A DNA stretch of 64,000 nt from a virus: IMG/VR virus record IMGVR_UViG_3300045941_000233, positions 1 through 64,000 of that record, one strand, 5' to 3'. Position numbers and translations under genes: made by a program. Within the stretch, counting starts at the first letter, position 1, and the number at the start of each line of letters is the position of its first letter. Positions 8,055-45,230 of the stretch are shown one piece after another. The notes below the pieces were generated by a model. That model saw only the letters and a list, made by a program, of their open reading frames with translations. It had not been told where the DNA came from and did no database searches.

Positions 8055-8127
8055 GCGCCCGTAGCTCAATGGACAGAGCGCCGGCCTACGGAGCCGGAGG
8101 TTGCAGGTTCGAGCCCTGCCGGGCGTG
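8055..8127 (+). tRNA. tRNA-Arg (anticodon ACG)
   Basis: The cloverleaf folds by eye: acceptor GCGCCCG with CGGGCGT (G-U closing pair), D arm GCTC...GAGC, anticodon stem CCGGC/GCCGG with loop CTACGGA (anticodon ACG), five-base variable loop, T arm GCAGG-TTCGAGC-CCTGC. CCA is not encoded. It lies 650 bases from the integrase gene, so it could be a phage tRNA or mark an attachment site. Both flanks look phage-like, which favours the first. Confidence 0.93.
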
Positions 8128-8337
8128 CTATTAGCACCTATCGGAAATATCGGAAAAACCTGGATTTGACGGCAGCGCGGCGGCCCCCGGGCCGGTGGTC
8201 AATTGGCGGTTTTTGCTCGATCGCGACAGGTTCGCCAACTGTCCACAGTGACAACCGCGCTTGCCGTCTTTTCCAGATTTTCCGTTTTTGCGTGATTTGA
8301 CGGGCATTTAAGTATCAGCTAATGTGGAGGAATGCAA

Positions 8338-41221: not shown

Positions 41222-43282
41222 ATGCCCAGCCGCGCGTCGTATCTACTCGACAAGCCCGCCAGCGTTCCGATGGTGAACCACTGCGCCGGCATTATGATCC
41301 GCGGACTGTTCGGCCAAGACGTGATCGAACCGCCGACTAGCCGCCGGCTGGAATCTCTTCGCAAAAAATGCCGCGATGGCAACCCGTTCCCGCTGGTGGC
41401 CTATCAGTGGCCGGAGTTTGTCGTCAAAGATCCGGCGGAAGCGAAATATTTTCAGGGCCAGATCGAAAACCCGGAAGATCCATGTCTCCGGCTAGACCCC
41501 TGGCAGCGCGAAATTATCGCGGCGTTTTTTGACGATACGATCGTCGAAATCTTCATCAAAGGCGCGACGAAATGCGGCAAGGGCATGTCCGTCTCCATCG
41601 GCACCAATCTGTGGTTTGACGTATGGCGCGAATGCAAGGTCATTCTGACGTCGGCCGACTACGAGCACGCTTGCAAAAATATTTACGGAGAAGTGCGTAT
41701 GTGGCGGGACCGGATGGGCGAGCCCGGCCCCGGCCGCATCGGCGCCGAAGGCATTTCTGATTTGCCAGAGCATTACGTCGTCGTCCGCAACCCGCTGAAG
41801 GACGAAGGCTTTTCCGGCCAGCACGGCCCGCGGACCCTGTTCGTATTCGATGAGAGCTCCGGCGTGCGCGACGGCCTATATGAAAACTCGCAGAAGCAAT
41901 TCCGGAAAATCGTTTCACTCTCCAACCCGCGTACTTTGTTTGGCTGGTTCCGGAACGGCTTCAAAAAGTGCACCGACGAAAACAAGACCCAGGTTGTCAA
42001 CGGAGATTTCGGCCGGCGGCTATGCGTGACTGTCGGCGGCCTGGATTGCCTGAACGTCCGCGAGAAACGATTAGAAAAACCGATCGCACCGCCCGGCGGC
42101 GTGGAAATTGACGGCCGCAAGTTCGAACCTGGCGACACTATCCCCAAGGAGTTTTTCGACAAAGCCAAGCCGCTCATCCCGAATCAGGTCGATTTCGGCC
42201 GCTACATGGGCATTTGCCAGCATGCGGACTCGCGGCATATCGACGTTTACGCGCACGGCAAATTCCCGACGGAAGACCCGCAAAAGCAGGTCATCCTTCA
42301 GTCCTGGATGGAATTTCACGAAAAGGCATGGTCAGCGGCCTCGCCGCCAGCGGTGGAAGCTTTCGGCCTGGACGTGGCCCGTTCGCTCGACGGCGACTCG
42401 ACTTGCCTTGCCGCCGGCGGCCAGACCGGGCTCCGCGGCACCCACAAATGGAAATATGCCGACACAACTTTTCATGTGGCGCAAGTGCTGGCCATTGCCC
42501 GCGAGCAGTACGGTATCGATCTGACGCTGGGCCGCGTGCCGGTGACGGTCGATATGGACGGACTGGGCGTCGGCGTCGGCGATCAACTGCGACAGAAAAA
42601 TGTGTGGGTGATTGATTTCAAAGGCAACGCAACCAGCCAAGTTGACCCGCGAACCTACGTCAATCTCCGCGCGGAAGCTTACGCCACCCTCGGCCGCCGA
42701 CTGAATCCAGACGACCGCTGGCATGGCATTCCGTGGGCCATACCAGCCAGTGAATCACTGCGACAGGAGCTCTGCGCCCCAGAGAAGATTTACGGCACCG
42801 ACGGATTGCGGTTTGGATTGACACCCAAGACTCGCGGTCCGGACCGTGAAGATATCGTCACCGTCAAGGAGAAATTGGGCCGCTCGCCCGACGAAGCCGA
42901 CTCGGTGGTCTATCTGTGGCATGCGGTCCGGATCCTGTTCAATCTGAACGAGCTATTTCAGCAAGTCTCGGCGCCGCTGGTGATGTACCCCCAGCCCGGC
43001 GATTCCAGCCGCGAGCTCCCCGGCAACGGCCACGCGGCGGCCAAGGAAAACGAAAATCTGGCTTGGCTCCGCCAGCAGTACGGCAGCCTGATTGGCGCCA
43101 GCCCGGCGCCGCCAGATCACGTTCAAGAAAAAATAGACCGATTCAAAAAGGAATCTGACAAAAAGGCCAGGGAGGCGGCCGAAGCGGCAGCCAAAGCGAA
43201 CGGGAATGGGAATGGAAACGGTCATGCTGGCAAGCCGGCGGAATCGTGGCTAGACCATGTGCAGTGGGGAGACGAGAAATAA
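41222..43282 (+). CDS. terL: Phage terminase large subunit
   Basis: 686 aa. Packaging ATPase: Walker A-like KGATKCGKGMS (~113-123) and Walker B TLFVFDESSG with catalytic Glu (~205-214). RNase H-like nuclease: FGLDVARSLDGDST (~380), VTVDMDGLGVG (~443) and the late Asp in SPDEADSVVYLW (~557). The C-terminal ~70 residues are a charged helix then GNGNGNGHAG and are extra. It translocates DNA into the prohead through the portal (51137). Between terL and the portal lies 8 kb of accessory genes, an unusual separation. Confidence 0.92.
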   Translation: MPSRASYLLDKPASVPMVNHCAGIMIRGLFGQDVIEPPTSRRLESLRKKCRDGNPFPLVAYQWPEFVVKDPAEAKYFQGQIENPEDPCLRLDPWQREIIAAFFDDTIVEIFIKGATKCGKGMSVSIGTNLWFDVWRECKVILTSADYEHACKNIYGEVRMWRDRMGEPGPGRIGAEGISDLPEHYVVVRNPLKDEGFSGQHGPRTLFVFDESSGVRDGLYENSQKQFRKIVSLSNPRTLFGWFRNGFKKCTDENKTQVVNGDFGRRLCVTVGGLDCLNVREKRLEKPIAPPGGVEIDGRKFEPGDTIPKEFFDKAKPLIPNQVDFGRYMGICQHADSRHIDVYAHGKFPTEDPQKQVILQSWMEFHEKAWSAASPPAVEAFGLDVARSLDGDSTCLAAGGQTGLRGTHKWKYADTTFHVAQVLAIAREQYGIDLTLGRVPVTVDMDGLGVGVGDQLRQKNVWVIDFKGNATSQVDPRTYVNLRAEAYATLGRRLNPDDRWHGIPWAIPASESLRQELCAPEKIYGTDGLRFGLTPKTRGPDREDIVTVKEKLGRSPDEADSVVYLWHAVRILFNLNELFQQVSAPLVMYPQPGDSSRELPGNGHAAAKENENLAWLRQQYGSLIGASPAPPDHVQEKIDRFKKESDKKAREAAEAAAKANGNGNGNGHAGKPAESWLDHVQWGDEK

Positions 43283-43319: not shown

Positions 43320-43401
43320 GACAGCCGCCGACATAGGATGATTCGGGCTGTGAAATCGTGGAACCAATTTTTCCGTGCCGGCAAAAACACAGGAGTCTTT
43401 T

Positions 43402-44001
43402 ATGTTGCTTGGATCGCAAGAGCAGGAAGTCTTTAAGGGCATCATCGACAAATCTGGCGACGATGCAAGGAAGGCGGCTGTCGCAATGGCCAAAATCTTG
43501 TGGAGCGACAAGATGCACAAGGCCGCGCTGGAAGAGCTCGTTGTTTCGCGGCTTGAAATAATGGCCAATCAAATCATTGCCGGCCGCCCTAATCGCAAGA
43601 TGCGAGAGGCGGCGGGAGCGTATGGCCGCGGAAAGGTCATCCCCCTTCCGAAAATCAAAAAACTTCCCGAAGAGCTCGCCGGCGTCCATCGCGAAGCCCG
43701 GGCCAAGTCGAAGATCCAAGAGAGCATTTGGGAATACCGCCTTGGCGGCGACATTGTTGGCAAAATTCCATGGTCCGACCTGCCTGGAATCATCGAAAGC
43801 AATCTGTCTCGCGGCGACGGCCATTATCGCAATGCAGAAATAGCCCGGCAGTTACTGAAGCTCGCCCCAGCGAACCGAAAGGGACGTATCGGCGACAGCG
43901 TGAGCGAGCGGGCTTTCCGAAAGATTTTCGAAAAAGTCTCGCGCGAATTCAGGACGGCCGCCAACAGCCGCACGGCTGCGAGGCGAAGGAAAGCGTCTTA
44001 G
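43402..44001 (+). CDS. Hypothetical protein upstream of the hairpin array
   Basis: 199 aa from ATG 43402 (AGGAG six bases upstream). MLLGSQEQEVFKGIIDKSGD, helices with VSRLEIMANQIIAGRPNRKM, and a basic C-terminus (SREFRTAANSRTAARRRKAS). The middle WEYRLGGDIVGKIPWSDLP is distinctive. No family recognised. The gene ends nine bases before the first arm of the array, under the same promoter, so it may be a third component or only a neighbour. Confidence 0.65.
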   Translation: MLLGSQEQEVFKGIIDKSGDDARKAAVAMAKILWSDKMHKAALEELVVSRLEIMANQIIAGRPNRKMREAAGAYGRGKVIPLPKIKKLPEELAGVHREARAKSKIQESIWEYRLGGDIVGKIPWSDLPGIIESNLSRGDGHYRNAEIARQLLKLAPANRKGRIGDSVSERAFRKIFEKVSREFRTAANSRTAARRRKAS

Positions 44002-44009
44002 GGAAATAT

Positions 44010-44422
44010 CTGCCGACACGGGAAAACGAGTGCAACCGAGCGAAGACGTCCCGTCGGCAGTGAAACAAAGTCCGTCATGGGTGACATAAGCCGTGAAACC
44101 GAGTCCACGATTCTCCTGTGACGGCAAATACAAGTCCAGCAGCAGACCCACTAACTGAAATCGAATGGGCCAGTTGCCGCTGGCAGCCACAAGTCCGCCA
44201 GGAGTAGAAGCTAATGAAATCGACACGGCCCGCCCCAGGCGGCAAATCCAAAGTCCCAAGGCAGGATTCACGCTTGAAATCGCGTACCGCGATCGCCTTG
44301 GGCAAACCCAAAGTCCGCCGGCAGGATGGCGATATGAAACCGGGGTCAACAATTGCCGGCGGCAAACCCAAAGCCCATCGGCAGAGCCGCGATATGAAAC
44401 CGACTGCGGAATTCGCCGATGG
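44010..44422 (+). repeat. Tandem array of seven covarying hairpin units (TIGR-like)
   Basis: Units of 59-64 bases, exactly 60 in the last four: arm (8), 12 bases, TGAAAYCG (8), 12 bases, complementary arm (8), linker CAAAYCCAAAGT (11-12). Arm pairs: 44010/44053 CTGCCGAC-GTCGGCAG; 44072/44117 CCGTCATG-TGTGACGG (6 of 8 pair); 44136/44176 CCAGCAGC-GCCGCTGG (7); 44195/44235 CCGCCAGG-CCAGGCGG (7); 44255/44295 CCCAAGGC-GCCTTGGG; 44315/44355 CCGCCGGC-GCCGGCGG; 44375/44415 CCATCGGC-GCCGATGG. The arms change from unit to unit while staying complementary, so pairing is what is conserved. Stops and frame changes in the first units exclude a simple coding repeat. Confidence 0.88.
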
Positions 44423-45230
44423 CACCCACTCCGTTTGTCAATCTATCGCCAGCGCTCACCGCGAGCGGTCGATTGCGATCAAGTCTGGCATCATGTTAGG
44501 CAATCGCCTTGTCGCGACGATTGCCCAAGTGATCGGCTACCACGCTGGCCGGGACAAGAAGTCGCGCGACAAGCTTTTTTCGGATGCCAGAAAAATCGTC
44601 AAGTCGCTTTCCAGTCTTTCAGAAGCCCCGGCGTCCGTCGGAAAGATAACGCCCGGCATGCGCGAACAGACTCATTCCCTGTCGTCGGCCGTCGATAAAT
44701 TTTCTGATTTGGCAGACGGTCTAGGCAAGGAGATGGTTCGGCTGGCAAAGGAGCTTCCGGTTGCCGAATGGGTTGGCGACAAAAATCAGCGCGGCTTCGG
44801 GCTTCTGTCTTTGGCTCAAGTGATCGGCGAGACCGGCGACTTGTCGCTATACTCCGCCCCCGGCAAGGCATGGAAGCGGCTTGGGTTGATGCCGTTCAAT
44901 GGCAAGATGCCGTCAACTTGGCGCAAACACAAAGGACAAGGCGGCCTGACAGCTAAGCAGTGGACCGAGATTGGCTACAACCCGCGACGTCGATCGATCT
45001 GTTACGTGCTGGGCGAAAATCTCGTCAAGCTGAACGGCAAAGGTCCGTATCGCAAGCGATACGACGAAGCAAAGAAATCAGGCAAAAAGGATCATCCGGA
45101 CTGGACGGACGGCCACGCCCACAAACACGGCATGCTATTGGCCGTTAAGCTCCTGATTCGCGATCTTTGGATCGAATGGAATCGCATAACAGGCGCAAAC
45201 CTAATTCGCGATCCATCGATCAAGCCATGA
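44394..45230 (+). CDS. IS110/Nop-like Tas-type protein without nuclease domain
   Basis: 278 aa from ATG 44394 inside the last unit; ATG 44493 (MLGNRLVATI) is an alternative, and the frame stays open back to 44214. Order: HRERSIAIKSGIMLGN start, helical coiled-coil region (KKSRDKLFSDARKIVKSLSS ... LGKEMVRLAKELP), then a C-terminal domain like Transposase_20 of IS110 enzymes: LLSLAQVIGETGDLSLYSAP, KRLGLMPFN, a GGLTAKQW stretch, and HAHKHGMLLAVKLLIRDLW. The DEDD catalytic domain of true IS110 transposases is absent, and no terminal Ser domain is seen. A Nop-like RNA-binding fold next to a hairpin array is the TasA-type layout of TIGR-Tas systems. Confidence 0.8.
   Translation: MKPTAEFADGTHSVCQSIASAHRERSIAIKSGIMLGNRLVATIAQVIGYHAGRDKKSRDKLFSDARKIVKSLSSLSEAPASVGKITPGMREQTHSLSSAVDKFSDLADGLGKEMVRLAKELPVAEWVGDKNQRGFGLLSLAQVIGETGDLSLYSAPGKAWKRLGLMPFNGKMPSTWRKHKGQGGLTAKQWTEIGYNPRRRSICYVLGENLVKLNGKGPYRKRYDEAKKSGKKDHPDWTDGHAHKHGMLLAVKLLIRDLWIEWNRITGANLIRDPSIKP

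What the first reader, a model, noticed from the sequence alone, without database searches (positions are those of the whole stretch)
44010..45230. Tandem covarying hairpin array feeding into a nuclease-less IS110/Nop-like protein: probable TIGR-Tas type RNA-guided system
Seen: seven units, 60-base period in the last four, built as 8-base arm, 12, TGAAAYCG, 12, complementary 8-base arm, CAAAYCCAAAGT linker. Arms differ in every unit but pair in 8, 6, 7, 7, 8, 8 and 8 of 8 positions, so complementarity, not sequence, is conserved. The adjacent gene encodes a helical coiled-coil plus a Transposase_20/Nop-like domain and lacks the IS110 DEDD domain. Known: TIGR arrays (tandem interspaced guide RNAs) sit beside Tas proteins, which have a Nop domain related to IS110 and box C/D proteins, in phages and parasitic bacteria; paired spacers read opposite strands. 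Inference: the paired arms are the two spacers of a guide RNA. The 32-base interval between arms is longer than I would expect for a 36-nt guide, so this may be a distinct subtype, or the guides may be cut differently.
Basis: partly seen in the sequence, partly recalled or inferred. Interest (0 to 1): 0.96.

Follow-up and report, generated by a model that had tools for sequence, protein, structure and literature searches.

The report
Phage stem-loop TIGR-TasA guide system
A virus carries seven small hairpin guide-RNA units next to a nuclease-free Tas protein, a known but little-understood kind of RNA-guided DNA-binding system, and a third, previously unremarked gene sits beside such systems in 23 of 25 loci examined.

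Summary
Seven tandem hairpins (44010-44422) run into a helical ORF (44394-45230). Arms pair in 52 of 56 positions; no other matching of arms does as well. The protein is a Tas protein: NCBIfam TIGR-Tas model 3e-22 (below its curated cut-off); its family profile matches only TasR and TasH in the PDB; AlphaFold pLDDT 89 with TasR/TasH the only significant fold hits. Related loci show stem-loop arrays around the gene, with strong covariation. This is a stem-loop TIGR-TasA system, a subtype already described by Faure et al. 2025 (PMC12045711). Beyond the known: (1) a ~170-210-aa gene directly upstream (window 43375-44001) is conserved in 23 of 25 tas loci, is the only such neighbour, and has no known function or fold; (2) about 75 cultured mycobacteriophages carry this system, with stems and flanks 93-100% identical but spacers only 34-39%, switching as A+B cassettes. 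No natural target was identified. Guide processing, DNA binding and the partner's role are inferred.

The parts
43375..44001 (+). Partner gene (208 aa, GTG start): member of a family found directly upstream of the array/tas in 23 of 25 distinct loci; function unknown
   Evidence: Iterative profile recruits one ORF per locus, always this position; leave-one-out E 1e-12 for the window member; only non-tas family recurring across loci; no PADLOC, NCBIfam, Pfam or fold match for the window protein
44010..44060 (+). Guide unit 1 (degenerate, loop TGCAACCG, 8-bp stem)
44072..44124 (+). Guide unit 2 (irregular spacing, stem with two G-T pairs)
44136..44183 (+). Guide unit 3: spacer A 44147-44155, loop TGAAATCG 44156-44163, spacer B 44165-44173 (boundaries +-1)
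44195..44242 (+). Guide unit 4: spacer A 44206-44214, loop 44215-44222, spacer B 44224-44232
44255..44302 (+). Guide unit 5: spacer A 44266-44274, loop 44275-44282, spacer B 44284-44292
44315..44362 (+). Guide unit 6: spacer A 44326-44334, loop 44335-44342, spacer B 44344-44352
44375..44422 (+). Guide unit 7: spacer A 44386-44394, loop 44395-44402, spacer B 44404-44412; overlaps the tas start codon
44394..45230 (+). tasA gene: 278-aa all-helical Nop/coiled-coil protein without nuclease domain (ORF open from 44214)
   Evidence: NCBIfam NF052498 E 3e-22; PDB profile hits only TasR 1.1e-18 and TasH 3.1e-9; AlphaFold pLDDT 89.3; Foldseek TasR/TasH top; start supported by MKPT/MKPK starts of L025 and L026 and by conserved RERSI block

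Best explanation
It is a phage-borne stem-loop TIGR-TasA system: a partner gene, an array of seven dual-spacer guide hairpins, and the TasA gene, in that order on one strand. Each unit is 5'-stem, box C, spacer A, loop repeat TG-AAAY-CG (box D + box C), spacer B, box D, complementary stem-3'. Inferred: the array is transcribed, cut by a host RNase in the unpaired A-rich linkers, and each ~48-51-nt hairpin is bound by a TasA dimer, one protomer at the stem-base C/D pair and one at the loop C/D pair. Spacers A and B then pair with opposite strands of an adjacent 18-20-bp DNA target of the form A + reverse complement of B. Having no nuclease, the complex acts by occupying and bending DNA, most likely to silence or block a rival mobile element or a host locus, perhaps through the conserved upstream partner protein. 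Shown here: gene order, architecture, covariation, family membership and fold. Not shown: expression, processing, targeting, and the partner's role.
For: Array beyond chance and unique in the genome. Protein is Tas: NF052498 TIGR_Tas_endo 3e-22 versus IS110 model 1.5e-4; single-sequence PDB hit 9mty TasR 3.5e-5; profile hits only TasR 1.1e-18 and TasH 3.1e-9; pLDDT 89.3, Foldseek 9mty E 1.2e-5 and TasH 9w02 E 5.7e-4, all prob 1.00. Relatives carry stem-loop arrays on either or both sides of tas. In 33 units of L019 and L025-L028, 95.1% of stem cells pair, covariation 0.770 versus 0.181 shuffled and 0.192 at best when slid; units found by the loop motif alone also pair above permutation. Invariant CGA and TG boxes flank two 9-nt variable blocks, matching box C/D and 9-nt spacers of TIGR. 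In 12 mycobacteriophages only spacer positions vary: identity 0.34-0.39 versus stems 0.93-1.00, gp75 3' end 0.990, tas 5' end 0.963; A and B always change together, 9 of 9 pairs. Partner gene.
Against: No transcript or processing data. No natural target found. The NF052498 score (79.7 bits) is below the curated cut-off (100), which was set for the endonucleases. The edge box of the window units is atypical: relatives have C-G directly at the stem base followed by GA, the window has an extra A opposite T/C, so spacer length is 9 or 10. Two of seven units are irregular. Nothing shows that the partner protein acts with TasA.
Confidence: 0.88

Rival explanations
1. The hairpin array is regulatory RNA or a set of protein-binding operator sites controlling the downstream gene (for example autoregulation by a Nop-like RNA-binding protein), not a set of guides.
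For: The last units overlap the tas ORF and start codon; similar overlap occurs in phages Rich, Morrissey and LonelyBoi; no targets were found.
Against: Units also lie downstream of tas (L019, L026, L028, L007). In mycobacteriophages the spacer positions are hypervariable while stems and boxes are constant, the reverse of operator sites. Faure et al. showed that such an array is processed and bound by TasA.
Confidence: 0.07
2. The in-frame 60-base repeats encode a repetitive N-terminal protein tail, and the apparent stems are a by-product of a 20-aa coding repeat.
For: ORF 44214-45230 stays open through the last four units, whose period is a multiple of three.
Against: Units 1-3 are out of that frame with 59-63-base spacing; arms covary; relatives have arrays with spacings that are not multiples of three in intergenic DNA; homology begins only near ATG 44394.
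Confidence: 0.01
3. The gene is a decayed IS110 transposase with a relic bridge RNA.
For: Weak IS110 model hit (1.5e-4); PHROG 4285 'transposase'; Transposase_20 in 4 of 17 relatives.
Against: The fold is complete without a DEDD domain; TIGR-Tas model and PDB Tas hits are far stronger; the array has seven units rather than one two-loop bridge RNA; the same kind of protein plus array recurs in most relatives examined.
Confidence: 0.02
4. The upstream gene is simply a conserved phage neighbour with no functional link to the TIGR system.
For: No experimental link; in the window it also lies just after a terminase-like gene.
Against: It is the only non-tas family recurring widely among 26 loci from diverse viruses; in the phage collection it occurs in 75 mycobacteriophages versus 76 with tas.
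Confidence: 0.25

Closest known systems
Stem-loop-array TIGR-TasA (Faure et al. 2025, PMC12045711; Peromyscus gut locus)
   Same: Nuclease-less coiled-coil + Nop-type protein; tandem hairpins with variable palindromic stems, box C/D motifs and two 8-12-nt spacers; viral context.
   Different: Here the loop repeat is constant (TGAAAYCG), the 'intermediate' form mentioned in that paper; one extra A/Y position lies between stem and boxes; a conserved partner gene lies upstream, which the main text does not mention.
Dual-repeat TIGR-TasR/TasH/TasA (PDB 9mty, 9w02, 21kl)
   Same: Tas fold, box C/D logic, two ~9-nt spacers per unit.
   Different: No edge repeat and no nuclease here. A cousin in Microcystis phage Mvi-JY20 (L003) does have a dual-repeat array, and lacks the partner gene.
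TasParB-TasA operons (Faure et al. 2025, fig. S14)
   Same: A second gene operonic with tasA.
   Different: Those have dual-repeat arrays and a ParB-like partner. The partner here is a divergent family without detectable match to ParB or any solved fold, so identity with TasParB is not supported, but the model's N-terminal half is of low confidence.
IS110 transposases with bridge RNA; box C/D snoRNPs (Nop5)
   Same: Related RNA-binding domain, paired spacers by analogy.
   Different: No DEDD domain, no fibrillarin-type partner, multi-unit array.

Membership tests
TIGR-Tas (TasA type) | Nop/coiled-coil Tas protein | tested here: met
   NF052498 3e-22 (below curated cut-off), PDB profile hits only TasR and TasH, Foldseek TasR/TasH top
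TIGR-Tas (TasA type) | No RuvC or HNH nuclease domain (TasA) | tested here: met
   278 aa, almost all helical from residue 11; no nuclease domain family found
TIGR stem-loop array | Tandem units with variable but palindromic stems | tested here: met
[quoted passage not shown]
   register in the window +-1 nt
TIGR-Tas | Array transcribed and processed into unit RNAs bound by Tas | not testable with these tools
   needs small RNA-seq / pull-down
TIGR-Tas | Spacers direct binding to opposite DNA strands of one site | tested here: inconclusive
   no composite target found in own genome, phages, or sampled IMG/VR scans
Dual-repeat TIGR array | Alternating conserved edge and loop repeats | tested here: not met
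   edge position is a variable stem
IS110 transposase | N-terminal DEDD RuvC-like domain | tested here: not met
   absent from ORF and model
TasParB operon | ParB-like partner protein | tested here: inconclusive
   no ParB match by sequence profile or fold for the partner, but the model has low confidence in its N-terminal half

The most novel reading that the evidence does not exclude
Stem-loop TIGR-TasA systems are at least two-protein systems: the conserved upstream protein is a dedicated functional component (adaptor, effector or guide-turnover factor) that explains what a nuclease-less TasA does. Its loci in cultured mycobacteriophages exchange A+B spacer cassettes rapidly, which would make TIGR biology testable in Mycobacterium smegmatis.
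Probability: 0.55. Interest if true: 0.88.

Novelty: new variant of a known kind. Interest (0 to 1): 0.72.

Why it matters
TIGR-Tas systems are one of few RNA-guided DNA-targeting families, and the role of nuclease-less TasA and its natural targets are open questions in the founding paper. This locus adds a clear stem-loop member. More importantly, its relatives reveal a conserved partner gene that a 50%-identity neighbour clustering (the method in Faure et al.) would be expected to miss, since its members share only 12-26% identity with the window's. They also show that about 75 culturable phages of one laboratory host carry the system, with hypervariable spacers in the 12 compared. Both make function and targets directly testable.

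Tried and rejected
Arms as spacers: rejected. Targets: composite A+rc(B) with gaps 0-2 gave no excess over shuffled spacers in the virus's own 104 kb. Three IMG/VR scans in a register one base too long found nothing. Two 9+9 scans found one independent site for unit 5 and five independent sites for unit 6. The unit 6 sites lie in unrelated contexts and look like chance matches to a string that can encode DGDIVD. Phage-collection BLAST gave only chance-level hits, including an exact 19-nt match in five E. coli phages that spans two of the concatenated queries. Mycobacteriophage composite targets: none in the phage collection and none above re-paired controls in two sister genomes; exact 18-nt matches are near the E-value limit of those BLAST runs, so this is a weak negative. 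Rfam: only a tRNA in the window. Alignment A1 was too divergent to scan with. Whole-array fold energy is uninformative. Promoter and terminator scans were at chance level. Terminase search for host or virus kin found no phage match.

Full report
What is there. The window is part of a 104,285-bp virus record. On the plus strand, after a terminase-like large-subunit gene (41222-43282, PHROG 2) and a 208-aa gene (43375-44001), lie seven tandem hairpins (44010-44422) that run into a helical ORF (44394-45230). Arm pairing is 8, 6, 7, 7, 8, 8, 8 Watson-Crick pairs of 8; of all 5,040 ways to match arms, only the real one reaches 52 of 56; shuffled sequence gives at most 2 well-paired stems at these positions against 6 observed. 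The array is unique in the genome.

The protein. The 278-aa product has no Pfam hit above threshold, but it matches the curated NCBIfam model for TIGR-Tas endonucleases at 3e-22 (79.7 bits, below the 100-bit cut-off) and the IS110 model only at 1.5e-4. Its best solved sequence relative is TasR (9mty, 3.5e-5). A profile from 17 relatives finds exactly two PDB families, TasR (1.1e-18) and TasH (3.1e-9). AlphaFold gives pLDDT 89.3; Foldseek puts TasR and TasH first with probability 1.00. It is a Nop/coiled-coil protein without a nuclease domain, i.e. TasA in the nomenclature of Faure et al. 2025 (PMC12045711). The start at ATG 44394, inside the last unit's ATGAAACCG loop, is supported by homologs that begin MKPK/MKPT at the same place (L025, L026) and by the conserved RERSI block just after it.

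The guides. Relatives fetched from IMG/VR and GTDB and from phage records have stem-loop arrays upstream, downstream or overlapping tas in most cases. In 33 units from the five closest loci, aligned without gaps, the invariant letters are C7 G8, T19 G20, A23 C24 C25 G26, and T37 G38. These are box C (CGA) after the 5' stem and after the loop, and box D (TG) before the loop repeat and before the 3' stem; between them lie two 9-nt variable blocks, the spacers. The stem pairs in 95.1% of cells with covariation 0.770, against 0.181 shuffled and at most 0.192 when the partners are slid. These units were chosen in part for pairing, so the percentage is biased upward; units found by the loop motif alone still pair above permuted arms in all five loci. 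The window's units follow the same plan, with one extra A (5') and T/C (3') between stem and boxes, so the spacers are 9 or 10 nt. Faure et al. [quoted passage not shown]

Independent support that the blocks are guides. About 75 cultured mycobacteriophages (Fromanvirus, e.g. BPBiebs31 gp74, annotated 'transposase') carry a TasA homolog with stem-loop units in the ~340 bp upstream. Across 12 of them the stems are 93-100% identical, the flanking genes 96-99%, and the spacers only 34-39%; whenever two phages share spacer A of a unit they also share spacer B (9 of 9). That is what rapidly exchanged guide cassettes look like, and not what operators or structural RNA look like.

A partner gene. An iterative profile seeded with the upstream genes of six loci recruited one ORF in each of 22 distinct loci out of 722 ORFs, always the one just upstream of the array/tas; a further locus (L005) joined in leave-one-out runs. 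That is 23 of 25 distinct loci; leave-one-out E-values run from 1e-33 to 8e-6 with no hit elsewhere. Apart from tas and ORFs antisense to it, no other family recurs this way: the partner genes hit up to seven other loci in single-sequence comparison, the rest at most two. In the phage collection it is matched in 75 mycobacteriophages, against 76 with tas. It was not found in L003, which has a dual-repeat array, or in L034. Caveat: with all five actinophage members left out, only two of five are recovered; the actinophage group is PHROG 4604, of unknown function, which a proteobacterial-type member also hits weakly (0.013). The window's member matches nothing in Pfam, NCBIfam or PADLOC. The family has no significant PDB profile match (best E 0.029), and the model (pLDDT 74, confident only for the last ~90 residues) has no fold match. 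Faure et al. state that TasA lacks clear associations with other proteins apart from occasional TasParB in dual-repeat loci. Their neighbour search clustered at 50% identity, so a family this divergent would be expected to escape it. I could not read their supplementary tables.

Mechanism. Most likely: transcription of the operon, cutting in the unpaired A-rich linkers by a host RNase, one hairpin per TasA dimer, spacers A and B pairing with opposite strands of an adjacent ~18-20-bp site (geometry taken from the TasR work), and occupation and bending of DNA without cutting. The outcome would be silencing, replication blocking or inheritance bias of another element, possibly through the partner protein. 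Only architecture, covariation, homology and fold are shown; the rest is inferred.

Targets. None were convincing. The virus's own genome, the phage collection, and sampled IMG/VR scans gave chance-level matches; mycobacteriophage cassettes gave none either. This agrees with the founding paper's statement that natural targets are hard to find.

Verdict. The array and Tas protein are a new member of the described stem-loop TIGR-TasA subtype; the conserved partner gene and the small box change make the locus a variant. The surprise lies in the partner gene and in the mycobacteriophage cassettes that this locus led to.

Noticed in passing
L037:2146-2482 (BPBiebs31) and L038, L041-L050: About 75 cultured mycobacteriophages carry a stem-loop TIGR array upstream of a TasA homolog annotated 'transposase'; in the 12 compared, spacers are hypervariable and swap as A+B cassettes between near-identical phages.
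   Followed up: yes
L003:4084-4410 (Microcystis phage Mvi-JY20): A dual-repeat TIGR array (ATGCGAGCC / ACGAAACCC with ~9-nt spacers), followed by a terminator-like sequence, lies downstream of an unannotated TasA homolog; the partner gene was not found there.
   Followed up: partly
L006, L007, L039, L004: In Mycobacterium phage Rich, Gordonia phages Morrissey and LonelyBoi, and Rhizobium phage RHph_X2_25, guide hairpins lie inside the 5' or 3' coding region of tas, so guide and protein sequence overlap.
   Followed up: partly
window 44394, L025 (tas start), L026:2886: The loop repeat ATGAAACCG of the last guide unit seems to provide the start codon of tas (MKP...).
   Followed up: partly
L053, L055-L060: Spacer composites of units 5 and 6 have exact matches in IMG/VR; the unit 6 matches all have gap 0 but lie in unrelated contexts whose shared string can encode DGDIVD, so they are judged chance.
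   Followed up: partly
spacer list (U1/U3): Some mycobacteriophage spacers are near-variants of each other at different units (AAACCCTCG/GCACCGCCC, AAACCCTCG/GCTCCGCCC, AGACCTTCG/GCTCCGCCC), as if tracking alleles of one target.
   Followed up: no
window 8055-8128: Phage-encoded tRNA-Arg (ACG anticodon).
   Followed up: no
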